A program made the position numbers and the translations under genes. The notes beneath the pieces were generated by a model. It made no database searches. It was not told where the DNA came from and saw nothing but the letters and a program-made list of their open reading frames with translations. This document shows, in pieces, positions 21,799-63,891 of a DNA stretch of 64,000 nucleotides. Positions within the stretch are counted from its first letter, which is position 1; every line of letters begins with the position of its first letter. This DNA comes from a virus. The stretch spans positions 1 to 64,000 of the IMG/VR virus record IMGVR_UViG_3300009008_000008; one strand, 5' to 3'.

Positions 21799-22176
21799 AT
21801 GGCCGATGAGCCGAAGACCGAAACACCCCAACCCCCTGCGCCCACAGTAACTGCCCTGCCCGGAGAGAACGGGATCCAGCCGCCAGAGCCGATGGGAGCA
21901 CGCCCACAAGGCCCCACGATTACCATGCCCATCGTCGAGCTGGCGGAAGCCTTGACCACCGCTTATGTTGACGGATTCAACTCAGCCGCGGCAGGCGTTA
22001 CCTTAATCAGCCGGAAGTTCAACCGCGAACAGCATAAGCAAGCCACGATCGTGCGAATTGCCAAAGCGGTCGGCGCCATCAAAGAGCCGGTTAAGGAAGC
22101 CCCTCCAGAGGGCCAGCCTGCCACTGACGCTCCGGCTGAGGCCAATGCCGAGGCAAAACCCCCGCAACAGGAATAA
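21799..22176 (+). CDS. proline/alanine-rich hypothetical protein, 125 aa
   Basis: AAGGAGAAG precedes the ATG. Residues 1-40 and 95-125 are rich in Pro, Ala and Glu and probably disordered; the middle (PIVELAEALTTAYVDGF) is a helical core. GC content and codon use are higher than in neighbouring genes. Its last 86 bp overlap, on the opposite strand, the end of the GGDEF gene, where the two transcription arms meet. Confidence 0.65.
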   Translation: MADEPKTETPQPPAPTVTALPGENGIQPPEPMGARPQGPTITMPIVELAEALTTAYVDGFNSAAAGVTLISRKFNREQHKQATIVRIAKAVGAIKEPVKEAPPEGQPATDAPAEANAEAKPPQQE

Positions 22177-23449
22177 AATCATCTGGGCGTTTCAACTCAC
22201 CTTTATGTTCCCAACGGACAAGGGCTTCGACTGCTTCTACCTTGTTGGCCCCCAGGTTTATTTTAGGTTGGTATACCAGATAAAACTCACCTTTTTCCAG
22301 ACCTTCACGGACGGAGGCTTCTATTTCAACACGACGGCAAGCTTTCTCTTGCATTTCTGGATGATAAAAGTGGAAGGTACCACGTCCAGCATTCTTGGAT
22401 TCATACATTGCACTGTCGGCACTCTTGAGCAGGTCTTCTTGGAGTTCTGCGTCGTCTGGGTAGACTGAGATACCGATTGAACAGGAGATGAAAATGTTCT
22501 GCCCACACAGCTGGAAGGGTAACGTTAACTGTTCCAGAATCTTACGGGCAACCAACTCAACATAACAGGGATGGGTGATACCTGTCAGGATAGTAGTGAA
22601 TTCATCCCCTCCAAGACGGGCTACAGTATCCGACTGCCGCACGCAACTCTTGATACGGATGGCTACCTCCCGCAGCAAGTCATCCCCTGCGTCGTGTCCG
22701 AGAGTGTCATTCACCCACTTGAAACGATCCAGGTCAATAAACATTAACACAACCTGTTCTCTGTGCCTCTTGGCGGCATACATAGACTGTGACAAACGGT
22801 CCAAAAATAGGCTGCGGTTGGGTAACCCTGTCAGTTTGTCCCTCTCTACCTGGAGTTTTAGCTGGTGTTCCAAATACCTCCGTTTGATTAAACACGCGAC
22901 TGTCGAAGCTACCACGCCAAGGAAATCCTGTTCTTCCTTATTCACAGGATGCCCTTCTTCCAGATATAGGTTAAGTACTCCCAAGAGCTTATCAGCATCC
23001 ATGATGGGCACTACATAATGCCCATGAGGAACCATGCCCTCGAATGTAAAGTCATGTTGGTGGTCCACTTTATCGGCGAAGAGGAGGCTCTGTGATTGCA
23101 GTACTCTACCACACAGACAATCCCCTAGTTTTATAACCGCGCATTGTACCTTCTGCTCTTCCAGGAACCCTTGCTGTGCCATCAAGTGTAGGTGACCTGA
23201 CTGTTCGTCTACCAGGAACACTCCTCCTTTTGGCACCAGTTTAAACCAAGGTATGTCCAGGATGATCTTTAAAAACTCTTGTAACTGGGATTTCAAAGGC
23301 ATCTGGTCAAGCGAGGTCAACAACAGACGGTTAAGTACCATCACCGAGTTAAATTTTTGTTGGTTAGAAATATTAGGCTCCTGTTGCATAAACCAAGCGG
23401 CGGATGGTGTCACCCCACAATCTTGTACGGCTGGTTTTTCTGTTAACAT
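22091..23449 (-). CDS. GAF-GGDEF protein with truncated EAL domain (putative diguanylate cyclase)
   Basis: A GAF sensor domain (about residues 45-195) is followed by a full GGDEF domain (200-365). The catalytic LGGDEF is at 279-284, the product-inhibition site RQSD at 271-274, and DKLTGLPNR opens the domain, so synthesis of c-di-GMP with feedback control is expected. An EAL phosphodiesterase domain then begins (VYQPKINLG; EAL at 408-410) but homology ends at FIPVA (about residue 429), after roughly 55 of 240 residues. The remaining 23 residues are antisense reading of the convergent gene. Hydrolysis of c-di-GMP is therefore not expected. There is no membrane segment. Host-derived gene capture is the likely origin. 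Confidence 0.9.
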   Translation of the reverse strand: MLTEKPAVQDCGVTPSAAWFMQQEPNISNQQKFNSVMVLNRLLLTSLDQMPLKSQLQEFLKIILDIPWFKLVPKGGVFLVDEQSGHLHLMAQQGFLEEQKVQCAVIKLGDCLCGRVLQSQSLLFADKVDHQHDFTFEGMVPHGHYVVPIMDADKLLGVLNLYLEEGHPVNKEEQDFLGVVASTVACLIKRRYLEHQLKLQVERDKLTGLPNRSLFLDRLSQSMYAAKRHREQVVLMFIDLDRFKWVNDTLGHDAGDDLLREVAIRIKSCVRQSDTVARLGGDEFTTILTGITHPCYVELVARKILEQLTLPFQLCGQNIFISCSIGISVYPDDAELQEDLLKSADSAMYESKNAGRGTFHFYHPEMQEKACRRVEIEASVREGLEKGEFYLVYQPKINLGANKVEAVEALVRWEHKGELKRPDDFIPVAGVLPRHWPQPERQWQAGPLEGLP

Positions 23450-25066: not shown

Positions 25067-25861
25067 TTACTCCACTGAAAGTAAGCTAGAGTCCTCCTGG
25101 ATAGCACTGTAAAACGCGGGAGAACTTACAGCACTGGTTTCAAAACCTTGGACCCCATGTACCTGCCGATACACCAGCCTGTTACCTTTCTTGTAGAAAT
25201 CAACAGGCCGGTTGGCAGATATATGACTACAATGCCCCAGTTCCTTCCCACAGTAGGAACAACTGTACTGGTCTACGTAGGCACCCATGGAATAACTGTT
25301 CATCTGCCCACTAAGGATATCCTTCACCAGGTCAGGATCCTTAGTGCGGTCAAACGCCAAGAGCTCCAGGAACTTCCAGACCTTTCCTTGACCGAACTCC
25401 GGCATCTTACGGAGGTAGGTATCGGCGATAACACCACGGGCTTTTGACAGAACAGTGTTCTTATGTTCAACAAAACATGGTTTCCCTTTAAACGTCTTGA
25501 ACGCCTGCATCCCTGCTTCAGGGTTGAACGCTACCATTGATGCCAGCGGGAACGCCACACCATTCCTGTTTGGTAAGTCTGTTGGAATCGTAATAACCGG
25601 CACCATCACAAAGTCCTCGAGGTTGTCAGAGATCTCGTAGGTTTTGCTGGCAAAAGGTAACCATTGGCTGATGTCTAGCGAGGTATCTCCGCTTTCCATT
25701 CCAAGGACCTCATTCCGCATTACGACCCTGCCCGAGGCTAAGGTCACATCTTTTCGTTTGACCGCCTGGTGGACCTCCAGAGGGTTGCAAAGGGCTCTTC
25801 CACCGAGATCATAGTTGGCTGTCTTGTTCACAGGACGCCGACCTGGCAAAAATTGTGTCAT
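25067..25861 (-). CDS. prohead maturation protease
   Basis: The protein has the layout of phage prohead serine proteases: LPNRNGVAFPLASM, the catalytic-type histidine in FVEHKN, and a serine in SYSMGAYVDQYSC. A zinc-like knuckle (CSYCGKELGHCSHI) follows the serine, as in many large myoviruses. It would cleave scaffold and capsid proteins inside the prohead. It lies directly behind the portal gene (4-bp overlap), the usual order, although the capsid gene is not in the window. At 264 aa the length is normal. Confidence 0.8.
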   Translation of the reverse strand: MTQFLPGRRPVNKTANYDLGGRALCNPLEVHQAVKRKDVTLASGRVVMRNEVLGMESGDTSLDISQWLPFASKTYEISDNLEDFVMVPVITIPTDLPNRNGVAFPLASMVAFNPEAGMQAFKTFKGKPCFVEHKNTVLSKARGVIADTYLRKMPEFGQGKVWKFLELLAFDRTKDPDLVKDILSGQMNSYSMGAYVDQYSCSYCGKELGHCSHISANRPVDFYKKGNRLVYRQVHGVQGFETSAVSSPAFYSAIQEDSSLLSVE

Positions 25862-28800
25862 GACACGTCTCCATAGGGATTCCGACGACCAATAAAACGC
25901 TGTGCCATTCGTTGTCGGCGTTTGTTGTTGGGTTCCTTGGCAATCTCACGGACCGCCTTGATTATCTTATCATTGATGGCTTTGTTGGCACGTGTTTGGT
26001 TGAACACGTGCCGTTTCTTGCCAGCTTTGTCGGTCGTAGACAACTCTGCGAGGTCTCCGAAATCCCTGTCCGTAAGGGTCTGGCGTTTGATAGACCGCAG
26101 ACCAGAGAAGGAAAAATCATCGTCGTCCTCGTCATCACCTCCACCTTTAAGTTCCTTGATTCGGTCCTTAATCTCCGCGTCTTCCTCAAGGTCACTCATC
26201 AGGCTGTCAACAGATAGACCACCGGCAGCAGCCCACATCCGCAGAGGGACCGGCACTCCCTTCTCGGTCAGGGTCTCCAATACTGTCAGGTACTCGGTGT
26301 CCGCCTCAGGCCGAAGGGCTTTATGCCAGTGCATGGTTGGAATAACCAGTTTACTGGTATCAGCCGTATACCACTGTACCATGTCGGTTGTCAACATAGG
26401 AGTTGTCCGACGGGCCGCCGACTCCTCAGGTGTCCTGTGTCGATAGTAAGGGTTAGGCTTTGGAGCATCCTCTTCCTTCTCAAAGCCATTGATAACCGAG
26501 ATCAATGGAAACAGCTTGTTGTAAAACACCCTGTGGGTGGTCATGTCACGGAACGCCCGCATGTGTTCAATAAACACTGACAACGCTACTTCCATCGTTC
26601 CATACGACATGTCTCCACTGTTATGTACCACGATACCGTTAGACACAAAGGCAGGTGCCACTTTGTGTTCCATGGTCAGGTCATACAAATGGGAAGTTCC
26701 AGCTGGTTTTACCTCCTGTACCGGGTCAAAGAAGTACTGGAGTTCAGACAAGCGCACCAATCGTCTGACAACTACAGGATCAATTTGTTCCAGGATATCC
26801 AATAAATCGGAGTATAGACCTTTCTCAAAGTTAGAGTAGGGCAGGACTCCATCTCGATGTTTACCCTTCCCAACCGTTGATCCCAAGTATTTTGAGGTGC
26901 GGTGACCAAAGCCTTCAATTAAAACTGGTTGGCCTTCCGCATTTTCAAACCACTCACCAACATTGGTTTCTCTGCGGATCCAACGGGATGCCAAGAAGTT
27001 TCGGATAGGTGGTATAGGTACCCCGAATGTACGTCCTTGTAAATCCGCTTCACGTACATCGTACTGGTTTTTTTCAGTATGGGCCAACCAAGGACGTAGA
27101 CGCCTGTAAAATTTGTTCCCAAAATACCGAATAACACTTAACCATTTGGGGTGGTCAGTCATCCGAAAGCTGGGTACCCCGAGGTCCGCCAATAGTATCT
27201 GCATTTGGTCCAACAATTGGCCACTACTACTGCAAAAACGCAGAGCCACAGTATCTTTCCTTTGGGCAACAGAGCCATCACCGTCAAGAAAAGCGGCAAT
27301 GAAAGCCAATCGGCATTCCGTCGGGGCCTGAAGGATGGACCAAGGTACTACTCTGTAGGCAGACGGATTGTTCACCTCGGATTTCCGTTTCTGTACGACC
27401 CCGAGTTCCTTCAACCAATGTACGACCTTTACCTCCTCGAAGGACATCTTGTAAACATCCGAATTGGAGGTACCCGTCACACCCTTAATGTTATACCTAC
27501 GACCTTTCGGGCTACTTAAGGTCCGTTCAGGAACCACACCAAAAACAGAGGTAAAAGCCTCTTGGTATCGGTCAAGGACTCCCAGATTCGAATTCGTGAT
27601 CGAAACCACGTTTTTCTTCTTAAGTGTGCCCTCAGACACGATAAGTCCTAACACATAGGCCAAATCGGGTGTCATTTCTGTCGGTTTGGTTGCAGCTTTT
27701 TGGGACCAACCTCCTTTAACCAGATAATCTGTGAGGTTCAGCCTCAGGGGTTCCGTCGCCTCCTGCCCCTGTGTGTCAATGCACAGGTAATCGGATTTTT
27801 GAAGGCGCTTCACAGGAACCCATTCCGGACGTAGGTCTTGTCCCAAAGTCAGTACCTCATGCTTCTTTGTTGTTGTGACATTATACCCGGATTGTGTAGT
27901 GGTTTTGACAACAGGTGATTTACCCCGGTACCACCAATGAATGGCTTTTGCAAACTCTCCAGAACGCCCCTTGACCAACAAATCTGTGGTGTACCCTTGG
28001 TCTTTACGTAGGCCCCTACGATCATACAATTGGTCAATAGGAATTAGGCCACGTTCCGTGTGAACATACGAGCCTTCCGCCAAACACAAAAAGCCCTCAT
28101 TTATCCCAAGAGCCTGCATCTTGAGGTTGGAGGTCTCTGGAATAGTATCCGTCCATTTCCAGGAGTCACCGCCGCTCCTGATTTCATTGGTATTCACATC
28201 ATCACGTGTGGCAATCATGGCACCAACAGGATCTAAGTCCGCTTGTTGGAACAGGGCTACGATAGCCTTGAGCTCCTCATCCGTGGGTTCCCAATCCTCA
28301 TCCCCTGCCACGATATGCAGGATCGACCGTTGCCTCTTTGCTGCCTCTGTCAGTGTACCCCTGTACAGGATCTTCTCCAGAAAGTAAATAGGCAGCAGCC
28401 GATGATACAACGAGGTACCACGATTGTTAAAGGTAAAGCTGCGCCTGGGTACATAAAGCGTGGTCAACGGATCGAGCGTCACCTCTGGGGCTCGCATGGC
28501 TCTCAGCATACCCGGGGACAGTCGTTCCTTCAGACGTTCGATGTGCGGTTCCCGGCTGTTGATGAACTCCTTCATGTCGGCCCCAATTTTCATCTTAATC
28601 AGAGGATCGGTGCCATACAAGGGAGTCGGAATCACAGTACAGTCGGCTATGTTCTGTGGTATCAAATCAGTAAATAATTTCTCCGCCTTTTTAAACACGA
28701 GGGTGGATACGAAGGTGCCGAGCACGAGGTAATCTACACTCATTTCAGGCATTAGACTACGCATGTTCAGGCGGTCCAAATTGGACTCGAACACCTCCAG

Positions 28801-29109
28801 TTGCCTCTCATCGGCTCCGCTAAGAGTCCAATCACTGAAGGGTAGGGTACTCATGAGGTCTACAGCCGCGCCGGCGATAGGGTCGTGGTAGTAGATATCC
28901 GTGTAAATGTCAAACAGTTGGCGAGGGTCGGAGGGTATTACACCATCCAGCATACCGTCCTTGATGGCTCCGAGTCCGGTATAACCCATCTGCATGTTGA
29001 CATTACCACCACCCATACCAAAGGGTGACATCTGATAACTGGATCTTACCTGAGGACGTTGGTCTGTCACAGATGCCCGTACGGCTATCTTCCGGCTACT
29101 TTGAAACAC
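25858..29109 (-). CDS. portal protein interrupted by a LAGLIDADG intein
   Basis: The exteins (residues 1-341 and 831-1083, 594 aa together) form a portal protein: the ring at the capsid vertex through which DNA enters and leaves. The early region (DPRQLFDIYTDIYYHDPIAGAA...) and position between terminase and protease support this. An intein of 489 residues (342-830) lies between GINEGFL and SGDMSYG. It starts with Cys342, ends in VVHN, and is followed by Ser831 as the +1 nucleophile, so self-splicing is expected. The extein C-terminus is acidic then basic (GGGDDEDDDD). The start is the first ATG after the zinc-protein gene. Confidence 0.85.
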   Translation of the reverse strand: MFQSSRKIAVRASVTDQRPQVRSSYQMSPFGMGGGNVNMQMGYTGLGAIKDGMLDGVIPSDPRQLFDIYTDIYYHDPIAGAAVDLMSTLPFSDWTLSGADERQLEVFESNLDRLNMRSLMPEMSVDYLVLGTFVSTLVFKKAEKLFTDLIPQNIADCTVIPTPLYGTDPLIKMKIGADMKEFINSREPHIERLKERLSPGMLRAMRAPEVTLDPLTTLYVPRRSFTFNNRGTSLYHRLLPIYFLEKILYRGTLTEAAKRQRSILHIVAGDEDWEPTDEELKAIVALFQQADLDPVGAMIATRDDVNTNEIRSGGDSWKWTDTIPETSNLKMQALGINEGFLCLAEGSYVHTERGLIPIDQLYDRRGLRKDQGYTTDLLVKGRSGEFAKAIHWWYRGKSPVVKTTTQSGYNVTTTKKHEVLTLGQDLRPEWVPVKRLQKSDYLCIDTQGQEATEPLRLNLTDYLVKGGWSQKAATKPTEMTPDLAYVLGLIVSEGTLKKKNVVSITNSNLGVLDRYQEAFTSVFGVVPERTLSSPKGRRYNIKGVTGTSNSDVYKMSFEEVKVVHWLKELGVVQKRKSEVNNPSAYRVVPWSILQAPTECRLAFIAAFLDGDGSVAQRKDTVALRFCSSSGQLLDQMQILLADLGVPSFRMTDHPKWLSVIRYFGNKFYRRLRPWLAHTEKNQYDVREADLQGRTFGVPIPPIRNFLASRWIRRETNVGEWFENAEGQPVLIEGFGHRTSKYLGSTVGKGKHRDGVLPYSNFEKGLYSDLLDILEQIDPVVVRRLVRLSELQYFFDPVQEVKPAGTSHLYDLTMEHKVAPAFVSNGIVVHNSGDMSYGTMEVALSVFIEHMRAFRDMTTHRVFYNKLFPLISVINGFEKEEDAPKPNPYYRHRTPEESAARRTTPMLTTDMVQWYTADTSKLVIPTMHWHKALRPEADTEYLTVLETLTEKGVPVPLRMWAAAGGLSVDSLMSDLEEDAEIKDRIKELKGGGDDEDDDDFSFSGLRSIKRQTLTDRDFGDLAELSTTDKAGKKRHVFNQTRANKAINDKIIKAVREIAKEPNNKRRQRMAQRFIGRRNPYGDVS
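26620..28086 (-). mobile_element. intein with LAGLIDADG homing endonuclease in the portal gene
   Basis: The 489-codon insert has splicing block A (CLAEGSYVHTERG), block B (TKKHEVLT), F (HLYDLTMEHKVAP) and G (GIVVHN plus Ser). Two LAGLIDADG motifs, LGLIVSEGT and AAFLDGDGS, mark an in-frame homing endonuclease; one acidic residue is Glu in the first and Asp in the second, so cutting activity may be intact. It would copy itself into intein-free portal genes. The insertion point is in a conserved stretch before GDMSYG. Confidence 0.92.
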
Positions 29110-43840: not shown

Positions 43841-44613
43841 TAGTAGTACCCTAACAGTTTATGTTGTTGAGCAACCACCCGGATGTTATATCCTTGGTTC
43901 CAGTTCAGGATCATCTGGGTGATGCGTTGGAGTTCCTTAGTAGGAACAGGGCCCTTGGTGTTGTCAGCACAGGGCGTAAGGATGATTGGGTGTGACATAA
44001 AAGCGTGGTCTTGTAACAACCCACTGAAATGTTGTAATAACCAATCCAGGTCTTCTTGGTCTCGTACCACTGCCTTGGCATATACCTGGGGCATCTTCTC
44101 GATAACTTGGTAAAGGGCTGCCAGCACGTCGGCCCCCAATTCGACACCTGTATTTGGCGTCTTGATATCCAACGACACCTGATCAAAACAGTTAAAGGCT
44201 TGGCTGTCAATGATAGTACCGCTAGTCTCCAGGTTTGTTCGCAACCCTCGCCGTCGAAGTAAAGTCGAAAGGCGGGTTACTTGGGGGCGGTAGTGGAGAG
44301 GTTCGCCCCCTGTAATGGAAACCTCCACCACTTTACCTTTGACTATCTTTACCAATCGGTCCGCAAGCGAGGAGACCTCAGCCAAGGGGTGTTCTCCTAC
44401 TGCCCAACTATCCTTGGTATCACAAGTAGTGCAGCCTACAGCACATCCGGATACACGGATAAATAGCCTGGGTACCCCTATGTTTATACCCTCCCCCTCC
44501 AAAGTCTCCTGGATTTCCATCACAGGGAGAACATCGTCGGGCACCTCATGGATTCCCAGTTTCAAGAGGTTACACTTAAACTTGGGTACCACCACATTGA
44601 TCGGCTTAATCAT
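43840..44613 (-). CDS. queE: 7-carboxy-7-deazaguanine synthase (QueE)
   Basis: QueE is a radical SAM enzyme that contracts carboxytetrahydropterin to CDG on the way to preQ0. The cluster motif is a classical C-x3-C-x2-C at C57, C61 and C64 (CAVGCTTC), and SITGGEPLHY plus TNLETSG are the SAM-binding blocks. At 257 aa it is normal; QTLEGEG near residue 37 is the family start block. QueD and QueC are absent in the window, so intermediates would have to be supplied by host or by genes elsewhere. Confidence 0.93.
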   Translation of the reverse strand: MIKPINVVVPKFKCNLLKLGIHEVPDDVLPVMEIQETLEGEGINIGVPRLFIRVSGCAVGCTTCDTKDSWAVGEHPLAEVSSLADRLVKIVKGKVVEVSITGGEPLHYRPQVTRLSTLLRRRGLRTNLETSGTIIDSQAFNCFDQVSLDIKTPNTGVELGADVLAALYQVIEKMPQVYAKAVVRDQEDLDWLLQHFSGLLQDHAFMSHPIILTPCADNTKGPVPTKELQRITQMILNWNQGYNIRVVAQQHKLLGYY

Positions 44614-46682
44614 CCTTCGACTCCTTCATAAAATTCAGTGTTCAGCGGGAAGTGTTCGTCCAACCAAGGTTGTATCCGTTTGCCTTCCGCACGAATCATT
44701 GCCATTGTCTCTTCTACATTTACATTGTAGCCAATTTCATCGCGTTGACGTTCTAACGCCGACCGGATGTTGTGCAGGAGGTTTTTCTTGGTGTAATCCC
44801 ACTTTTGCATGGCGTCCCCGGAAGCCCCTATGTCAAAGTCTACCGCTAGCCCTACGTTAAACTGGAAATGAAACGTCTCTGCCACTTTCTGCTCAACGCC
44901 GACTGTAGTACACCACTCCAGCAATCGGAGGACCAAAGGAATATACCGATAGTTCACCTCCACTTCAACGCTGTCATGGACCATCATGGACGGGTAAAGG
45001 TTCGTTGGAACCCCTATCGACTGGAGTTCTTCCCCGTCAGGATCCAGCCCATATAAGTCCTGTAAGCTTTCCCACAGTTTTTCACTGTACAGGCGTGCAG
45101 CAAGGAATCCCAACTGGCTGGCGAATCCCTGAATAGGGCTGTTGGCCGCCCGTCGTTTCATGGCGGACACCAGACCAGGAACCTCTGTCATGTAAGCAAA
45201 CAGGTTTCGCTTGAACCCCAGAGGGTTGTAGGTGTACAAACGGTCGGCACTAAAATCGCATGTCCACTGGATCCAGTTGCCTGCCTTGAAAAACTTGGCA
45301 AAGAAACCGCCCTTCACCTTTTTCATCTCAGCTTCTGACTTTCCAGTGTCCCGAGCCAAAGACCTATCCGACTTACCATACATGGTCCCAAAGGTAATCA
45401 CCTTTGAATCCTGCCGTTGTTCCTTTGTCACCTTCTCTACAGGTGTGCCAGTAAAGAACTGGTAGTTAAGTTTGTGGGGGTCGCCCTTCTCTTTTAAGTC
45501 GTCTCTGTGCCGAGCGGTCGGTTGCTGGCGGAACCGCAGACGGAGGTTGTGCACAACCTTAAACATCATGGCCAGCACGGCATCCTTGCTGATGATACCC
45601 CAACAACGCACCTCATGAGCGGCATAATCAAGCTTAATAACCAAACAACCCACACGGGCAGTGAATGAACGTTTGATAAACTTGGCATCAGGACCGTGTT
45701 GGGGTGTTTGTTGGAGGCTTGGTTCTGAGCTATTACTGCGCCCTGTCACAACATCCTTAAATCCATACTGCGGACGTAACCTGTGGTCCACCTTCCCGTC
45801 ACGGGATTTACCAATCTTCTTGTAGAAGGCGTTGACATAGGATGTGAGCAACTTCTTGAGCTTGGACAAGGTGGTGAAGTCAGCCACCTCTGGATGTTCT
45901 TTGTACTTTTTCTGGAATGCGGCGTCTATTGAAGCGGCATCATCCTTACCTGTTGACAGAGGTTCCAGCCCCATCACCTGGATAAACAACATCTGTTTGT
46001 GGGCGGCTTTATTGGGATCAAATACCCAAGCCTGGGTGTTACCAAATATACCACCGCCTGGGGGAACCCCTTGTACTTCACACAACAATCGGTTGGCGGT
46101 CTGGACATGTTCTGACTCTCTCATCTGAGCCGCGAGTTCCTTCCGTTTGGCCAGCACTGGGGACCGTCGGCGGTCGCGGAGCAACAACAGGTATTCGATA
46201 TCCAGATGGGCTCCTGTTTGTTCCATGCCACTCATCACATGGACAGTATCCGACATCTGAGTAAGCAATAAGCGCCTATAAAACCTTCTGTAGTTGTGTT
46301 TACCTACCCGTTGGAGGGCCGCCCTTTCTTGCTGGAGTTCATGGACACGGAAGCAAGCTTGAGTATCCATTGCACAATAGTCTAATACCTCGTCAGACAG
46401 GTCTCTGTTGGCTATGTCTTGACGGTCATCTTTAGAAAACCTGGCGTCATAGTAAAAGGCGTTCCCATAGTAGGCCAATATTTGTGCCAACCCATAAGCT
46501 GGTGTACCGTACAGCATCAACACCTTCATGTTCTCGTCAAGGCAATTGTGAACCAAAACTGGTTTATCACTAATTTCATTACAAATAAATAGGTTGTGAT
46601 TATCCTGTACCGTAACATCACATACCATAGGTGGGGAGTCAACCACCTTTACCGACTTAACTCTTACAGTTCGGGTAACCAT
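44610..46682 (-). CDS. DNA polymerase A, C-terminal part with C-intein
   Basis: Residues 1-46 are a C-intein (VCDVTVQDNHNLFI, ending VLVHN), then Cys47 starts the extein CLDENMKVLML. This part contains exo III (YCAMDTQ) and the complete polymerase: motif A VIKLDYAAHEVR, motif B KVITFGTMYGKS, motif C MVHDSVEVEV. Trans-splicing to the N part encoded at 47698-49092 would give a family A polymerase of about 1010 aa. The ribosome site GAGG lies inside the opposite-strand endonuclease gene, and the two ATGs touch in CATATG. Confidence 0.93.
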   Translation of the reverse strand: MVTRTVRVKSVKVVDSPPMVCDVTVQDNHNLFICNEISDKPVLVHNCLDENMKVLMLYGTPAYGLAQILAYYGNAFYYDARFSKDDRQDIANRDLSDEVLDYCAMDTQACFRVHELQQERAALQRVGKHNYRRFYRRLLLTQMSDTVHVMSGMEQTGAHLDIEYLLLLRDRRRSPVLAKRKELAAQMRESEHVQTANRLLCEVQGVPPGGGIFGNTQAWVFDPNKAAHKQMLFIQVMGLEPLSTGKDDAASIDAAFQKKYKEHPEVADFTTLSKLKKLLTSYVNAFYKKIGKSRDGKVDHRLRPQYGFKDVVTGRSNSSEPSLQQTPQHGPDAKFIKRSFTARVGCLVIKLDYAAHEVRCWGIISKDAVLAMMFKVVHNLRLRFRQQPTARHRDDLKEKGDPHKLNYQFFTGTPVEKVTKEQRQDSKVITFGTMYGKSDRSLARDTGKSEAEMKKVKGGFFAKFFKAGNWIQWTCDFSADRLYTYNPLGFKRNLFAYMTEVPGLVSAMKRRAANSPIQGFASQLGFLAARLYSEKLWESLQDLYGLDPDGEELQSIGVPTNLYPSMMVHDSVEVEVNYRYIPLVLRLLEWCTTVGVEQKVAETFHFQFNVGLAVDFDIGASGDAMQKWDYTKKNLLHNIRSALERQRDEIGYNVNVEETMAMIRAEGKRIQPWLDEHFPLNTEFYEGVEG
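46545..46682 (-). other. C-terminal half of split intein
   Basis: 46 codons with splicing blocks F and G, ending in Asn before the Cys nucleophile of the extein. It starts on its own ATG, so it must join the N-intein after translation. Confidence 0.92.
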
Positions 46683-47741
46683 ATGAAGACCTCAGAAATA
46701 CGTATGTTAGTGGAGCGGCGAGTGTTTGACCAAAAAATAAAGTTAACTCAAAAATTTGTACGAGACATGTCACCAAAACTCTTAGGATATTGCCAAAAGG
46801 AAGCTCTGCGAATTTATGGAGGTAAATACCCACCCTGGTGGGCTATTCTCTATAAAGTTATTTACAAGGACCACTATCGGTGCCGGTGTGGGTCCGAAAA
46901 ACTAGCTTGGCAGGGTTGGGAAGGCGGTCTGGCGGAATACTGTTCCTGTAAATGTGCAGGGGCCTCTCCGGATGTTTTGAAAAAGAGGGAACATACTTGC
47001 CAACAAAAGTACGGTACTAAACATGTACAATCGGTACCTAGTATACGTGCTAAATTTAAACAGTCTATGGTACGAAACCAAGGAGTAGAATACACAGCCC
47101 AAAGCCCACGCTTAAAAAAGAAGATGCGTAAAACACTCAAAAAGAACCATGGAGTCGAAGAAACTTTCCATTCCATGGTTCTTTATGGTAAAGCAAAGGC
47201 CACCATGTTACAGAAATATGGTGCTGAGCATAACCAACAGGTCCCCCACCTGTTTGAACAACAACAAAGGTCAGGTTTTAAAATACGTACCATAAAAGTT
47301 AATGGGAAACGGTTTAGGGTACGTGGAGGGGAAGGTCATGCTATAAAATACCTTGTCCACGAACTTGGGTGTTCTATAGACGAAATTTACACGACGGCGG
47401 TACAAGGTAAGCCATCCATCCCTTGGTATGACAATAAAAACAAGTACCACATATATCACCCTGACATCTATGCCAAAGTTAAAGGGCGATGGTTTATTAT
47501 TGAAGTCAAAAGCACGTATACAGCGGGTATAACCACCAAGTCTGGGGCTGAGTTTTACCGGCTACGTATGAAGGCAAAGGGTGTGGAAGAGGCCGGTTAC
47601 AATTTCAGGACACTCCTTGTCCATTATGGACGGTCCCTCCCTCTTGACTACCGTCCACTTGTTATTAAAGACATACACCAAAAGACCAGAAAACAGGTTA
47701 GGTCTGAAGTAAAACTTCATCGTCAGAGGTTAGGTTCTTAG
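46683..47741 (+). CDS. free-standing Vsr/PD-(D/E)XK homing endonuclease
   Basis: This is the only + strand gene in the right arm and fills the gap between the two polymerase parts. The N-terminal half has repeats with KYGTKHVQSV, NQGVEYTAQS and KYGAEHNQQV, a DNA-reading pattern found in phage endonucleases. The C-terminal half ends in the nuclease core (YHPDIY, then WFIIEVKS, near residues 258-275) of the Vsr-like/EDxHD group. The ATG abuts the polymerase ATG in CATATG and the end overlaps the other polymerase part by 44 bp. It probably cuts intact polymerase genes and spreads the whole split arrangement. Confidence 0.85.
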   Translation: MKTSEIRMLVERRVFDQKIKLTQKFVRDMSPKLLGYCQKEALRIYGGKYPPWWAILYKVIYKDHYRCRCGSEKLAWQGWEGGLAEYCSCKCAGASPDVLKKREHTCQQKYGTKHVQSVPSIRAKFKQSMVRNQGVEYTAQSPRLKKKMRKTLKKNHGVEETFHSMVLYGKAKATMLQKYGAEHNQQVPHLFEQQQRSGFKIRTIKVNGKRFRVRGGEGHAIKYLVHELGCSIDEIYTTAVQGKPSIPWYDNKNKYHIYHPDIYAKVKGRWFIIEVKSTYTAGITTKSGAEFYRLRMKAKGVEEAGYNFRTLLVHYGRSLPLDYRPLVIKDIHQKTRKQVRSEVKLHRQRLGS

Positions 47742-47994
47742 CTTTTACATAGGAACCTCGGGTAACCGACCAAACCTCATGGTCTTCAGTAACGCGAATG
47801 GATCCCCCTTCATAGGATATTTCCACCATTCGTTGGTCTGTTGGGTGGGTAGAAGTAGCTAAAAGTGGTTTATATTCTTCCTGTTGTGTTTTATGGTTAT
47901 ATGATAAAACCTGAGGAGGATTCCCCATAACCACCAAGTCTTTCATTTGTACCATACCACGTTCCGTTACCACCCAAGACTCTGGGTGTATACA
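47698..47994 (-). other. N-terminal half of split intein
   Basis: 98 codons with block A (CIHPESWVVTERG) and block B (RVTEDHEVW, with the T-x-x-H site). There is no endonuclease domain in it. It ends at the stop codon with no linker. Confidence 0.92.
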
Positions 47995-49092
47995 GAACTC
48001 ACCGGCAATGGTGTCCCAAACAGGCCAATAAATGAATGGGAGATCGAACTCCTGACGTATAATACGAAGGTCAAATTTGGCGTTGTGCATAACCAAATAA
48101 CGAGGGGATTTAGGCTGCCATTCCACTCGTTGCCCAAAGTAGGCACGTAGTTCCTTAAATATTGTGCGGAACTCTGATCCTGAGAATGGGGTATCACGAT
48201 GGTGTACAGGGAGGATAAAAGCCCTGTCGGGATTGTCTGAGAATTGGAGGGTCTGGAGTTGGTTATGATGAACGGACAGGTTCTTGGTCTCTGAGTCAAC
48301 GGAAACCACGGGAGCCCGTTTAATGACCCTCATCATACGCTTAAACTTGCTCAACGTATCGATGAGGATTGGATTTGGCCGCACCTCGGAGGCCGTAAAT
48401 GGGAGTCGGTCCAAAAACGCCGACATGAGAGTGCGTCCGATATATCCAAGAATATTGGCCTGGGTGATGGCTTCATCCATCTTTGTCTGACTCTCGGCAT
48501 CGGAGTCATTGTCCATGTCGGTACCACGCAAAAAATAGGTGTGGTCGTACCGTATGGTGTTGGTGACCAGGACAGGCTTCCCTCGCACTTTGATAGCATG
48601 GGGCCAACCCCTTTTATGTGAAATGTCATCCACCCGGGGTAACAGGGATTCTGCCGCTTCATCCCCAAATACTATCACGTTCGTCGGATCCATCTTGCGA
48701 ACAAACGCCTTTACTCGCTTAGAAGCAGCATCATTGGCGTGCTTACGTCGGGCACCTTTGAGGTGGTAGGTCTTGAAGAAATTGAAGTTGATGGTGGCAT
48801 AAGCCACCGATTCCTCAATGGATTCTGGGTTGACAAGAGCACATTGTCGGCGGGCAAATTGTAGGAGGTTCGTGACAACGGTGGCGCCGGTTCCTCGATC
48901 CAATAACGCCTTTTCCTTGAGGTCTTTACCATCCACATGTTCTACCACCAGAATAACACGGCGCCTGGCGGTCTTCCAGTTTTTCGTTATAGGGATAGCT
49001 ACGTCAAATGCGGGGCATTCCTTTGGGCTCCAACCCTCTGGAAGATCGTTTTGGAAAGTCACATAACGCATCTGCCGGCGGTCTGTTATCAC
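47698..49092 (-). CDS. DNA polymerase A, N-terminal part with N-intein
   Basis: Residues 1-366 form the N-extein: an N-terminal region of about 240 residues of uncertain fold (FGDEAAESLLP recalls uracil-glycosylase-like folds) and the 3'-5' exonuclease with exo I VSVDSETKNL and exo II VMHNAKFDLR. It ends WDTIAGEF, and Cys367 begins the N-intein of 98 residues. On its own the protein lacks exo III and the polymerase. The stop lies in the end of the endonuclease gene. The neighbouring tmk gene overlaps its start by 4 bp. Confidence 0.92.
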   Translation of the reverse strand: MITDRRQMRYVTFQNDLPEGWSPKECPAFDVAIPITKNWKTARRRVILVVEHVDGKDLKEKALLDRGTGATVVTNLLQFARRQCALVNPESIEESVAYATINFNFFKTYHLKGARRKHANDAASKRVKAFVRKMDPTNVIVFGDEAAESLLPRVDDISHKRGWPHAIKVRGKPVLVTNTIRYDHTYFLRGTDMDNDSDAESQTKMDEAITQANILGYIGRTLMSAFLDRLPFTASEVRPNPILIDTLSKFKRMMRVIKRAPVVSVDSETKNLSVHHNQLQTLQFSDNPDRAFILPVHHRDTPFSGSEFRTIFKELRAYFGQRVEWQPKSPRYLVMHNAKFDLRIIRQEFDLPFIYWPVWDTIAGEFCIHPESWVVTERGMVQMKDLVVMGNPPQVLSYNHKTQQEEYKPLLATSTHPTDQRMVEISYEGGSIRVTEDHEVWSVTRGSYVKAKNLTSDDEVLLQT

Positions 49093-60793: not shown

Positions 60794-60913
60794 TCACATT
60801 CCCAGCAACAGCCTCATTTTTACCCATGCAAAAAACATCGCACCACCTACTATATACAGTAATCCCATAAAGAACAGCTCTTCCTTCCAGTGAGGGCCCC
60901 TTGGATCTTTCAT
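60794..60913 (-). CDS. small single-pass membrane protein, 39 aa
   Basis: ATGA-coupled to the ligase end. After 12 polar residues there is one hydrophobic helix (LFFMGLLYIVGGAMFFAW). It heads the small-membrane-protein cluster. Confidence 0.55.
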   Translation of the reverse strand: MKDPRGPHWKEELFFMGLLYIVGGAMFFAWVKMRLLLGM

Positions 60914-61878
60914 TTTTCTAGGTTGAACGTCTCAACCAGCTCTTCCCTAGTCATGATCTTGATGCCAAGGTTAACCGCTTTCCGCTCCTTGGAACTGCCA
61001 GTACCTTTAAGTTTCATCACCAGGACTGTCACTTTCCTGGAGATGCCGCTGGCGATAGTACCGCCCTCACGTTCGATTTGTTCTTGTAAGTCTTTATCCC
61101 TGAAGCCGGTAAACACCACAATCTCACCCGACATCTTGTCACCCTCTGGAGGAGCCACAGGACCTAGTGTTTCAATGGTAATCAGGCGTTTGATGGGTTT
61201 TACGAAGGCCTGGAATTTGGGAAATCCTTGGGCAAACTGCTTGGCACGCTTACTGCTGAACCCAGATACAGACAGGGCCATATGCTCCAAGTCCCGAGGG
61301 TTAGGTCTGTTAAGATCCATGATCTGCGGGTATTTCTCAACCAGTGGTGTTAACTGCCGTACACCAAAGCCAGGACCGAATACCCCAGAAGCCGCCATCA
61401 ATACGGGCAGAGACACTGGATTCAAAGCTTTCTTAATCCCGGTGACGATGGTGGTGGCCGTTTTATCCTGGATGCCAGGAACCGCCATCAAGTCTTTTTT
61501 CGTGGCTCGGATAACGGCTTCGATGGAGTCGATTCCATGAGTAGCCAACCGTTGGATTGTACCTTGAGCAAAGTTTTCGACTTCAATGGCCTTAAAAAAC
61601 CAAGCAATTTGTTTTACCAACTGTTCGTCGGTGTCCCCCGTGGCGCGTATATCGACACCAGAGGAAGTCCATTCAAAGTTACCGTCTTCCGGTAATCCTG
61701 CCTTGCGGCTAGGAGCAACAACCTCCAAAATATGCGGGATAACATCTCCACTCCTTGTAATCTTGAGGACCGCACCAGGCCCTACCTTGTTGTCGTTGAT
61801 GAACTTGGCATTGAAACCAGTTACCCGACGGATAGTTACCCCTCCCAATCTAACACCAGGACGTACACTTTTAGCCAT
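60910..61878 (-). CDS. ligA: NAD-dependent DNA ligase, C-terminal fragment
   Basis: It resumes LigA within the OB fold (RPGVRLGGVTIRR, then ITRSGDVIPHILEVV), followed by a helix-hairpin-helix region (MAVPGIQDKTATTI) and a BRCT domain (VVFTGFRDKDLQEQIEREGG). The four-cysteine zinc finger normal after the OB fold is missing: that stretch has no cysteine. The fragment starts at an ATG that overlaps the endonuclease stop and has no NTase, so it needs the N fragment. The ATG is part of the join, not a native start. Confidence 0.9.
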   Translation of the reverse strand: MAKSVRPGVRLGGVTIRRVTGFNAKFINDNKVGPGAVLKITRSGDVIPHILEVVAPSRKAGLPEDGNFEWTSSGVDIRATGDTDEQLVKQIAWFFKAIEVENFAQGTIQRLATHGIDSIEAVIRATKKDLMAVPGIQDKTATTIVTGIKKALNPVSLPVLMAASGVFGPGFGVRQLTPLVEKYPQIMDLNRPNPRDLEHMALSVSGFSSKRAKQFAQGFPKFQAFVKPIKRLITIETLGPVAPPEGDKMSGEIVVFTGFRDKDLQEQIEREGGTIASGISRKVTVLVMKLKGTGSSKERKAVNLGIKIMTREELVETFNLEK

Positions 61879-62908
61879 GGTGTATCCCCTTTAAAATCTG
61901 AGTGCGTGTCTTCCGATACCAACCTCGTGGCAAAACTATGCGTTTGGGGGAGCCGTTATCATTTTGCATAACCAAAAGTCGAAAGATAAAACCATCCTTC
62001 ATTGTCTGTCGGGCTTTAGCACACAAAATGTGCCATAAACGGTCAGGGGAGCTTTTATGTAATCTATGGTTTGTTAATCCTGCCGTGTGTAAAGACTTTA
62101 CTTCTATAAGTATGTTACGGTCCGGGAGGAACAAATCGGGGTAGTACCTACGGTTCTTTCCGTCAAGTTGGTAATATACAACCGGCACTTCGCGGTCACT
62201 AAATACTCGGATCCTTGAAGGATCCACCCCTTTTTTGTGGAGTAACCAATCCAATGCTAGGTCTTCATATCCTTGTACCTGAACGACCCGGGAACCTAAC
62301 GTATAAGAATGATAAAATCTTGTGCTGGAACAAGCATTACATGCCAAGCCTCGTTTAGCCAACACGGAAGAAGGGCGGGCCGTAAATAAGGCACCGCAAG
62401 AAAGGCATTTATGTTCTATTGGAACACTAATACCCTTATACACTCCTATAGGCTGTAGGGCTTTACCTAATTTCTCCAACCTCTCACCGTATCTCTCTGT
62501 GGTATGTAGGCCATGTTTTGACGGGTTGCATGATCGACAACCAACACCACGTTTAACAGCCTCTGTGGTATACCAATCCTGGGTATTACAAAACTTACAT
62601 TGATACAGGTTTTTGGCATTCTTCAACCGACGATAACCTTCCATAACATAAAAGGAAGAGTTACGGATTTCTGTCATATGGTTGCACATCGAATGGAAAT
62701 TCTGCAACCTATCAGAGCAGGCAGGGCAGTTAAGGAACCCGTTTTTCGTGGTCCTGGGTTTAGTTATAAACCCATTACCGCAGATCTTACAATAATGGCT
62801 ACAAGGTACGTGAACACCGGAATACCCGGAAAGGTACCCTACCAAAGTAGAATCCAAGGATTTAATATACTCTTGTTCTCTTACCTCGAGAGATTTAGAC
62901 ATACCCAT
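61871..62908 (-). CDS. Vsr/PD-(D/E)XK homing endonuclease between ligase halves
   Basis: The N-terminal 210 residues carry repeated zinc knuckles (CKICG, CPAC, CKFC, CRSC, CLSCG, CNAC), used to grip DNA. The C-terminal part has the same nuclease core as the polymerase endonuclease: YYPDLFLPDRNILIEVKS and HTAG following it. ATG and stop overlap the ligase halves to the base. It is transcribed with the ligase. It probably cuts intact ligase genes and inserts itself by repair. Confidence 0.85.
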   Translation of the reverse strand: MGMSKSLEVREQEYIKSLDSTLVGYLSGYSGVHVPCSHYCKICGNGFITKPRTTKNGFLNCPACSDRLQNFHSMCNHMTEIRNSSFYVMEGYRRLKNAKNLYQCKFCNTQDWYTTEAVKRGVGCRSCNPSKHGLHTTERYGERLEKLGKALQPIGVYKGISVPIEHKCLSCGALFTARPSSVLAKRGLACNACSSTRFYHSYTLGSRVVQVQGYEDLALDWLLHKKGVDPSRIRVFSDREVPVVYYQLDGKNRRYYPDLFLPDRNILIEVKSLHTAGLTNHRLHKSSPDRLWHILCAKARQTMKDGFIFRLLVMQNDNGSPKRIVLPRGWYRKTRTQILKGIHHG

Positions 62909-63891
62909 TACATCGGTTCCACTATGACAGTAGGTTTCAAAATACCATGCTTAGACACGTTCCATTCTACACTCACCACCCTACATTTCACTATCTGATC
63001 CTCCATCAACATCTTGAAGGCTACGCTGTACCGAGGGTTGCCAGATGTGGCGCGTTTGTATATTGAGTCCTGTGTGACCACCAGACCGTCTATGGCAAAC
63101 TTAGAGCTCTTCCGCCTCGCAATGAGTCTGTCAGAGAGTGTCTGGGCGTCCAGGACCTTATAGGCCTTGGCAGGAGCGACCGTGAATCCAAGCTGGTGTT
63201 TCAGGTAGTTGAGCTGTTCGGAGGGTTTCTTGCGTGGAACGATGAGTTCGTAGCACACCAAGGTGGCGTCTTTGAGGGCAGGGCTGACATCCGGGCGGTT
63301 GACCAACCCACCCATGAAATTCCGTGGGTTTGCGAAGTCCTTGGCGTACTTCTTGAACGCCGTCTCGGACATGATGATCTCGGCCCGTACCGCGAAGGTG
63401 TCCTGTGTCTTGGGAAGCCCAAGAATTGGCACCATGGACGTTACATCCTGTCCGACCTTACCGTTACCTCGGGTAAACAGTTGGTACCGGCCCTTGGTAC
63501 AGATGATAAGCATTGAGATGCCGTCCATCTTGTCCGACACCACGTAGGGCCCTGGGTTGGCGTCAAACCAACGGTCAAGGTCTGGAGTGTTGGGTTTGAT
63601 CTTGTCGAGGGAACCCATCCAATAGGGCAGTTTTTGTTTCTTACCCTGATCGACAGGAGCGCCTACTTTTTGGAGCAAAGGGCTGTCAGGGAACCTCTGG
63701 CGGAACGTATCCTCAATCGCGTCAAACTCGGCGTCTGACAAGAAAGGGCTTCCCTTGTAGTACGTGTTCTTGGCCCGGCGGTATAACTGACGTAGCAGCC
63801 GAGCGGACAACTTTGAGGCATAACCTCCAGGGTCTGCCTTTAGGGCTGTCAAATCGAACTCATACGCTGCCACTTCCCTCAACCTTTTCAT
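62908..63891 (-). CDS. ligA: NAD-dependent DNA ligase, N-terminal fragment
   Basis: A shortened Ia-like start, then the adenylation domain: Lys121 in SDKMDGIS is the AMP acceptor, TRGNGKVGQDVT and NPRNFMGG are further blocks, and the DNA-binding LKPTVIVEPM is the first part of the OB fold, where the fragment stops. It ends in TAATG shared with the endonuclease gene. Alone it could bind NAD and be adenylylated but would seal nicks poorly. Confidence 0.92.
   Translation of the reverse strand: MKRLREVAAYEFDLTALKADPGGYASKLSARLLRQLYRRAKNTYYKGSPFLSDAEFDAIEDTFRQRFPDSPLLQKVGAPVDQGKKQKLPYWMGSLDKIKPNTPDLDRWFDANPGPYVVSDKMDGISMLIICTKGRYQLFTRGNGKVGQDVTSMVPILGLPKTQDTFAVRAEIIMSETAFKKYAKDFANPRNFMGGLVNRPDVSPALKDATLVCYELIVPRKKPSEQLNYLKHQLGFTVAPAKAYKVLDAQTLSDRLIARRKSSKFAIDGLVVTQDSIYKRATSGNPRYSVAFKMLMEDQIVKCRVVSVEWNVSKHGILKPTVIVEPM

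What the first reader, a model, noticed from the sequence alone, without database searches (positions are those of the whole stretch)
44610..49092. DNA polymerase in two pieces with a split intein and an opposite-strand endonuclease gene between
Directly seen: the N part ends in a complete 98-residue N-intein, the C part starts with a 46-residue C-intein, the junction fits exo II/III (DTIAGEF then CLDENM), and a Vsr-like/PD-(D/E)XK endonuclease gene fills the gap on the other strand. Known: free-standing endonucleases between split-intein genes have been reported as fractured genes. New here: the endonuclease is inverted, its ATG and the polymerase ATG touch as CATATG so each gene's ribosome site lies in the other gene, and its 3' end overlaps the N part by 44 bp. 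The invader cannot spread without coupling to the splice of the polymerase, and its expression is antisense to both parts. The split is inside the proofreading exonuclease.
Basis: partly seen in the sequence, partly recalled or inferred. Interest (0 to 1): 0.85.

Follow-up and report, generated by a model that had tools for sequence, protein, structure and literature searches.

The report
Split phage polymerase with reversed nuclease gene
A large phage carries its DNA polymerase gene in two halves that can be rejoined by a self-splicing protein element, with a "homing" DNA-cutting gene lying backwards between the halves; the parts are a known kind of arrangement, but the backwards layout looks like a recurring variant that I did not find described.

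Summary
A family-A DNA polymerase of a phage (128-kb record) related to jumbo phages PaBG, Vibrio GR11A and Dickeya JA11 is encoded in two parts. The first ends in a 98-residue N-intein, the second starts with a 46-residue C-intein; joined, they give 1010 aa, at a junction that fits six uninterrupted relatives. A 352-aa PD-(D/E)XK homing-type endonuclease (DUF7487) lies inverted between them, with touching ATGs and a 44-bp overlap of 3' ends. Intein and endonuclease are AT-rich against the exteins, so the cassette looks foreign. The kind is known ("fractured genes"), and inversion is not unique to this window: I found five other distinct inverted loci, three in cultured phages (helicase genes of Dickeya JA11/JA33, Yersinia fHe-Yen9-02, Vibrio GR11A). 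All six share convergent 3' overlaps. In gp41-1-like and NrdJ-1-like loci, by contrast, 65 of 65 intervening ORFs lie on the same strand (many near copies). Inverted fractured genes thus look like a recurrent variant, five of six in this jumbo-phage group. Trans-splicing and homing are inferred. The mutual ribosome-site claim holds well only for the polymerase half. Dassa 2009, the defining paper, could not be read.

The parts
47995..49092 (-). PolA N-extein, 366 aa (GTG start), with the region before the exonuclease, Exo I and Exo II
   Evidence: Pfam DNA_pol_A_exo1 35.7 bits over cut-off 23.6; phrog_17 DNA polymerase 1.8e-15; aligned to six intact relatives
47701..47994 (-). N-intein, 98 aa (stop at 47698-47700)
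   Evidence: both halves joined are 43% identical to a continuous mini-intein in another phage polA, L085, and 40% to a split one, L062; profile of the three matches NrdJ-1 intein, 2.2e-14
46683..47741 (+). Inverted homing-type endonuclease, 352 aa, DUF7487, PD-(D/E)XK (P260, D261, E274-V-K276)
   Evidence: Pfam 3.8e-28; PHROG homing endonuclease 2.1e-11; D261, E274 and K276 invariant in 43 sequences; model pLDDT 84.5, nearest folds TnsA, a splicing endonuclease and Hjc
47698..47741 (.). Convergent overlap, 44 bp: end of the N-intein on -, last 14 aa and stop of the endonuclease on +
46680..46685 (.). CATATG: start codons of the C part (-) and of the endonuclease (+), head to head with no gap
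46690..46693 (-). Likely ribosome site (GAGG) of the polymerase C part, inside the endonuclease gene
   Evidence: -6.3 kcal/mol against anti-SD
46545..46682 (-). C-intein, 46 aa, ends VLVHN, +1 residue Cys
   Evidence: C-intein HMM hit 6.2e-21, the window being one of the rows of that HMM
44610..46544 (-). PolA C-extein, 644 aa: Exo III and the polymerase domain
   Evidence: Pfam DNA_pol_A 125.9 bits over cut-off 34.3; intact in relatives

Best explanation
This is a mobile split-intein/endonuclease cassette in the DNA polymerase gene. A DUF7487-type PD-(D/E)XK homing endonuclease gene sits, inverted, at the place where inteins normally carry their endonuclease, so an ancestral mini-intein like that of L085 is broken in two. 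The polymerase halves are translated separately and rejoined by protein trans-splicing into a 1010-aa proofreading polymerase. The endonuclease cuts cassette-free (or endonuclease-free) alleles in mixed infection, and repair copies the cassette. Shown: anatomy, precise extein junction, intein motifs, conserved nuclease residues, foreign composition, recurrence of the layout. Inferred: splicing, cleavage, homing, and the order of events (mini-intein first, endonuclease second).
For: The extein junction fits uninterrupted relatives, with the +1 Cys present in two of six. Intein residues are in place: C1, TEDH in block B, penultimate H, final N, +1 C (block names recalled). A continuous homologue, L085 (141 aa, polA), aligns end to end with the two joined halves, so the break lies at the usual endonuclease site. 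Tree: window, L085 and L062 polA inteins form one group, 95/91 support. GC is 0.43 N-intein, 0.43 endonuclease, 0.38 C-intein against 0.50 in both exteins; GC3 is 0.33-0.40 against 0.55-0.57. Nuclease residues are invariant in 43 sequences. The same architecture stands at other sites: four helicase loci at two sites and one terminase locus. A close relative of JA11 (L294, which by its length of 253,323 bp is Dickeya JA29) has an uninterrupted helicase, N part 96% identical, so that cassette is gained or lost among close relatives.
Against: No splicing, cleavage or transcript data. No near-identical empty polymerase allele was found, so homing of this cassette is not shown. The endonuclease start has a weak ribosome site, and promoter-like sites are at chance level. 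The co-conversion-like patch at the JA11 helicase site (20 of 48 bases differ from L294) is not seen against L295 (12 of 48, ordinary), so it may be a change in L294; over the whole 5.1-kb stretch 138 of 5145 windows reach that level.
Confidence: 0.78

Rival explanations
1. Gene in pieces: the intein halves are remnants and the polymerase halves assemble without a covalent joint, as described for Aeh1 NrdA and as the DNA ligase of this phage seems to do.
For: The phage's own LigA is in two pieces around a related endonuclease with no intein seen. A split NrdA that works without splicing is described in PMC3653736 and PMC10448857 (passages).
Against: All splice-site residues are kept in both halves, which align over their whole length with the continuous L085 intein. 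An unspliced joint would leave 98 and 46 extra residues inside the exonuclease fold.
Confidence: 0.07
2. The inverted endonuclease is not a homing enzyme for this site but a free-standing one that landed in the intein and acts elsewhere, for example against competing phages.
For: Relatives of the enzyme often stand free or inverted: of 65 distinct loci, 60 could be scored for neighbours, and 15 of those 60 (the window's own locus among them) lie against both neighbours. PaBG carries one inverted between sbcD and a DHH gene.
Against: It sits at the canonical endonuclease point of the intein, and related enzymes do so in five other distinct loci: L137, L139 (26.5 bits, just under the Pfam cut-off of 27) and L109 inverted, L116 and L129 on the same strand.
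Confidence: 0.12
3. Assembly error (false inversion or chimera).
For: By my reading of the ORF list the endonuclease is the only + strand gene in a long block of - strand genes.
Against: Identical in a second contig over 16 kb, one of the two junctions present in a third, non-identical record, and the same layout in cultured, separately sequenced phages.
Confidence: 0.01

Closest known systems
Fractured genes with split inteins and free-standing endonucleases (Dassa et al. 2009, NAR 37:2560; not held; known to me from memory and from reference lists and passages of citing papers)
   Same: Conserved replication enzyme broken by a split intein, free-standing endonuclease gene between the halves, phage setting.
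   Different: In gp41-1-like and NrdJ-1-like loci tested here the intervening ORF is on the same strand in 65 of 65; here it is inverted. Orientation in the original loci could not be checked.
Split UvsW-like helicase genes of Dickeya JA11/JA33, Yersinia fHe-Yen9-02, Vibrio GR11A, IMG/VR L109 (found here; the records do not name the middle gene an endonuclease)
   Same: Split intein, inverted endonuclease, 3' ends overlapping by 24-69 bp, phages of the same group.
   Different: Helicase instead of polymerase; head-to-head gaps of 41-105 bp instead of 0; GR11A has another endonuclease (no Pfam hit at 0.1; Vsr-like by a motif I recall).
Pseudomonas phage MIJ3 PolB split intein with HNH endonuclease (PMC6892783, passages read)
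   Same: Phage DNA polymerase in two parts around a split intein with an endonuclease gene.
   Different: Family B polymerase, HNH enzyme, all three genes on one strand by annotation.
EDxHD/Vsr-outgroup homing endonucleases with CapR/DUF4379/DUF723-like domains (PMC12350094, passages read)
   Same: JA11 and L109 enzymes hit CapR, DUF4379 or DUF723 plus DUF7487; the window enzyme shares the DUF7487 nuclease.
   Different: Those described in the passages are in group II and group I introns, not inverted in inteins.
NrdJ-1 split intein (PDB 8ubs)
   Same: Best solved-structure match of the intein profile, 2.2e-14.
   Different: Other host gene; same-strand ORF between the halves in NrdJ-1-like loci, 8 of 8.

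Membership tests
Split intein (Hint fold) | N fragment with Cys1 and block B TxxH, C fragment ending HN before Cys/Ser/Thr | tested here: met
   (motif definitions recalled)
Split intein (Hint fold) | Profile similarity to characterised inteins | tested here: met
   NrdJ-1 2.2e-14; a DnaX mini-intein 5.3e-9; a DnaE intein (7qil) 2.2e-8
Split intein (Hint fold) | Trans-splicing activity | not testable with these tools
   needs protein experiment
Fractured gene (Dassa type) | Conserved enzyme gene broken by a split intein with a free-standing endonuclease gene between | tested here: met
Fractured gene (Dassa type) | Endonuclease on the same strand (a feature of gp41-1-like and NrdJ-1-like loci, not known to be part of the definition) | tested here: not met
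   inverted here; 65 of 65 same-strand there
DUF7487 (PF24308) | Pfam gathering score | tested here: met
   99.4 bits against 27
EDxHD/Vsr homing endonucleases (I-Bth0305I type) | Shared catalytic fold standing out among PD-(D/E)XK folds | tested here: inconclusive
   I-Bth0305I Z 5.2, TnsA 8.2, Hjc 7.4; Foldseek had none at E <= 0.001
PD-(D/E)XK nucleases | Conserved D...ExK on the core strands | tested here: met
   D261, E274, K276 invariant in 43 sequences; strands 262-266 and 269-276 in the model
Homing endonuclease | Cuts the cassette-free allele at the insertion site | not testable with these tools
   needs cleavage assay
Family A DNA polymerase | Pfam DNA_pol_A over cut-off | tested here: met
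   125.9 bits against 34.3
Gene in pieces without splicing (Aeh1 NrdA type) | No intein or intron at the break | tested here: not met
   intein halves present at both ends; no Rfam family at gathering score in the window

The most novel reading that the evidence does not exclude
Inverted fractured genes are a separate class in which the inverted endonuclease, with start codons head to head and 3' ends overlapping, makes its transcript antisense to both halves of the host gene. Endonuclease and spliced polymerase (or helicase) production would then be mutually exclusive in time, and the unspliced C part alone would be a polymerase without proofreading.
Probability: 0.2. Interest if true: 0.7.

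Novelty: new variant of a known kind. Interest (0 to 1): 0.5.

Why it matters
Fractured genes are thought to show how endonucleases enter inteins and how split inteins arise. A recurrent inverted form, apparently built from three kinds of endonuclease (DUF7487 by Pfam; the GR11A and L134 types by eye only) with one shared geometry, constrains that model: an inverted gene is hard to derive from an in-frame endonuclease domain that later broke loose, and fits the entry of a free-standing gene. It also gives testable pairs (JA11 with and its close relative L294 without a cassette) and several new natural split inteins, and it puts a protein-splicing step on the assembly of a proofreading domain.

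Tried and rejected
Group I intron at the break: no Rfam family in the window at gathering scores. Chance ORF: rejected by family hits and conserved catalytic residues. Sigma-70 promoter for the endonuclease: 4 sites found in 46300-47900 against 3.1 expected, none of them upstream of its ATG on its strand; four other head-to-head gaps gave 0-1 sites against 1.0-2.1 expected. Phage promoters of other types were not tested. Inverted endonuclease remnant in the gap of about 175 bp of L062: a 24-codon reverse stretch starts at the C-part ATG, but no similarity was shown, so not claimed. One origin of all inverted layouts: the tree of 17 inteins (two of them N halves only) clusters the inverted label (2 changes, 4 of 500 shuffles as low) but rejects one clade of the six inverted rows plus L062 and L085 (p-AU 0.02); 15 of the 17 rows carry an orientation label, and most branches are weak. 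The rows were picked by endonuclease and intein searches, so proportions are biased. Defence nuclease: no PADLOC hit. Vsr membership: not settled. The helical N-terminal repeats were not searched apart from the whole model. A bacterial-genome scan with the polymerase found no relative. A plasmid search with it gave 67 records, the five listed at 26-27% identity. The N-intein alignment A6 could not be used for a scan; other queries were used. Dassa 2009 is not held; in the passages of citing papers and reviews that I saw no endonuclease orientation is stated.
Full report
What is there. The polymerase gene of this phage is in two parts on the - strand. The N part (47698-49092) has 366 extein residues and a 98-residue N-intein; the C part (44610-46682) has a 46-residue C-intein and 644 extein residues. 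Between them, on the + strand, lies a 352-aa gene, 46683-47741. Its ATG touches that of the C part (CATATG), and its last 44 bp overlap the end of the N part. By my reading of the ORF list, not by a gene call, the genes run on - from about 22 kb to 64 kb with this one exception. The record is 128,047 bases and may be a fragment.

The break is a true extein junction. Alignment with six uninterrupted phage polymerases (Vibrio GR11A, Xanthomonas PhiXhv-12, Achromobacter Motura, Pseudomonas PaBG, Burkholderia BcepSaruman, Pseudomonas Pori-4) puts DTIAGEF|CLDEN at one spot between Exo II and Exo III, and two of the six have Cys at +1. Of 80 IMG/VR loci with this polymerase (the best 80 of 124 that the scan confirmed, some of them copies of one phage), 73 are uninterrupted. 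The seven others are: the same phage again (L011); L062, split by an intein at Exo III (KY|C) with only about 175 bp between; L085, with a continuous 141-aa mini-intein at polymerase motif A; and L069, L076, L079 and L083, which are broken elsewhere with no intein that I saw. The window intein is 43% identical to L085 and 40% to L062, and the three group in the tree with 95/91 support. So the same intein type exists unbroken, and the window's break falls at the usual endonuclease site. A profile of the three finds the NrdJ-1 intein as best solved structure, 2.2e-14.

The endonuclease. Pfam DUF7487 at 99.4 bits; a PHROG called homing endonuclease at 2.1e-11; D261 and E274-V-K276 invariant in 43 sequences. 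The AlphaFold model (pLDDT 84.5, pTM 0.54) has helices followed by a PD-(D/E)XK-like domain. The second look by VIA-align ranks TnsA (Z 8.2), a splicing endonuclease (7.5) and Hjc (7.4) first, with the homing enzyme I-Bth0305I at Z 5.2; such Z values are middling. Foldseek alone had no match at E <= 0.001. PMC12350094 (passages) describes a large outgroup of EDxHD/Vsr enzymes with CapR, DUF4379 and DUF723-like domains; the JA11 and L109 enzymes carry such domains plus DUF7487.

The cassette looks foreign. GC is 0.50 in both exteins, 0.43 in the N-intein, 0.43 in the endonuclease and 0.38 in the C-intein; GC3 is 0.55 and 0.57 against 0.36, 0.40 and 0.33. Of 152 one-kb windows, five are as AT-rich as the endonuclease: four that overlap this cassette and one at the ligase endonuclease. 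In the other inverted loci examined the contrast is smaller.

The inverted layout recurs. tblastn of the endonuclease and of the joined intein met side by side in Dickeya phages JA11 and JA33. There a helicase gene is split, with an unannotated endonuclease on the other strand between. The same stands in Yersinia fHe-Yen9-02 and Vibrio GR11A. Of 90 phage records with a relative of the fHe-Yen9-02 helicase N part, only four match over 80% of it or more, intein included. Home-made N- and C-intein profiles over the loci then held gave 13 distinct split loci with an ORF between, copies removed by me. Six are inverted: window polA; JA11=JA33=L050 helicase; L109=L178 helicase; fHe-Yen9-02 helicase; GR11A helicase; L134=L135=L136 terminase. 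Seven are on the same strand: L102=L103 IMPDH; L111 RecA-like with a TnpB-like gene; L111 topoisomerase; L116=L117=L190, L129 and L126=L128 RecA-like; L140 KP13-7 NrdA. The C half is a weak hit in two of them (L111 RecA-like, L126). Host genes are, by likeness of the junction to L116 for L126 and L129, by annotation for L140. The enzymes of L134, L111 topoisomerase and L126 (HNH) and of L140 (GIY-YIG) are named by eye. One split locus (L062) has no ORF. All six inverted loci have overlapping 3' ends, 44, 69, 24, 64, 35 and 55 bp (order: window, JA11, L109, fHe-Yen9-02, GR11A, L134). Head-to-head gaps are 0 in the window and 41, 54 and 72 bp in JA11, fHe-Yen9-02 (42 to the annotated start) and GR11A, and 105 and 23 bp in L109 and L134, worked out by hand; start codons are in part my choice. 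The window is the tightest. MIJ3 PolB, the published polymerase case, is same-strand by its annotation. L316, a further locus with several same-strand split inteins, was met later and is not in this tally.

Yardstick. gp41-1-like and NrdJ-1-like loci in IMG/VR gave 87 loci (79; 8). 76 held both halves apart; 65 had an ORF of at least 90 aa between them, and in 65 of 65 the largest lay on the same strand; 11 had none. Many gp41-1 loci are near copies, so 65 is not a count of independent events, and the ORFs were not tested for being endonucleases. For the endonuclease family at large, 85 of the 98 rows were given (13 repeats of contigs left out); they hold 65 distinct loci, 60 with neighbours on both sides: 39 parallel to both, 15 against both, 6 mixed. 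So an inverted member of this family is not rare in itself, which lowers the surprise. On the intein tree the inverted label is clustered, 2 changes, 4 of 500 shuffles as low; one clade that includes the terminase locus is rejected, p 0.02. I read this as at least two origins, one of them in the PaBG-like jumbo phages. The sample is small and was found through these very families.

How it most likely works. Each half is translated on its own and the intein halves rejoin them. Splicing brings Exo III to Exo I and II, so proofreading needs the splice while the C part alone holds the whole polymerase domain (inference). The endonuclease gives the cassette its mobility. Support from a sister locus: L294 (Dickeya JA29 by its length) and L295 have uninterrupted helicases, 96% and 90% identical to JA11 in the N part. 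Against L294 the 48 bases round the JA11 site differ at 20, the highest level in that gene (7 of 1562 windows reach it), though over the whole 5.1-kb stretch 138 of 5145 do; against L295 they differ at 12, which is ordinary, so the patch may be a change in L294. For the window itself no near-identical empty allele was found, so homing there is inferred.

Inversion is not peculiar to this locus. The ribosome-site claim holds for the C part (-6.3) but weakly for the endonuclease (-3.8). Expression antisense to both parts follows from the layout, but promoter-like sites are at chance level.

Known or not. The kind is known from Dassa et al. 2009, which is not held; its abstract I only recall. The listings of searches, and the passages read, gave no description of inverted endonucleases in split-intein genes nor of the JA11, fHe-Yen9-02 or GR11A cases; most listed papers I did not open, and most subscription papers are outside this library. 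I therefore call it a new variant of a known kind, with the caution that the original figure could show inverted cases.

Noticed in passing
window 60910-63891: NAD-dependent DNA ligase in two pieces (62908-63891 and 60910-61878, -) with a second DUF7487 endonuclease (61871-62908, -) between, same strand, ends overlapping, no intein seen; PHROG positions 7-335 and 336-654 abut exactly.
   Followed up: partly
window 25858-29109: 1083-aa ORF (portal-like by my reading of the sequence, not tested) with a full LAGLIDADG intein (Pfam LAGLIDADG_3 and Intein_splicing).
   Followed up: no
L111 1586-2839 (IMGVR_UViG_3300027784_000010): A TnpB-like gene (OrfB_IS605, Cas12f1-like TNB) lies between the split-intein halves of a RecA/UvsX-like gene, in the place of the homing endonuclease. 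The C-intein hit is weak.
   Followed up: partly
L316 1840-8062 (IMGVR_UViG_3300036715_002117): What looks like a ribonucleotide reductase gene (by my reading) in several pieces with three N-intein ends and C-intein-like starts, plus two intervening ORFs, all on one strand.
   Followed up: partly
L062 4401-5000 (IMGVR_UViG_3300025288_000012): PolA with a split intein at Exo III and only about 175 bp between the halves; a 24-codon reverse stretch starts at the C-part ATG.
   Followed up: partly
L076, L079, L083: Polymerase genes of this family broken into two ORFs near the same profile position (about 755-769) with no intein seen.
   Followed up: no
L069 3876-6848: An HNH/AP2-like stretch of roughly 190 aa (by eye) sits in frame inside the polymerase ORF with no splicing element recognised.
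   Followed up: no
L141 829-3270 (Vibrio GR11A): The helicase N part holds a second, full-length intein near the Walker A motif upstream of the split one (by eye).
   Followed up: no
window 22091-23449: A GAF/GGDEF-like signalling protein gene (by eye) at the turn between the + and - strand gene blocks of the phage; not tested.
   Followed up: no
L010 3620-4444 (Pseudomonas PaBG): A free-standing relative of the endonuclease lies inverted between sbcD and a DHH phosphoesterase gene.
   Followed up: partly
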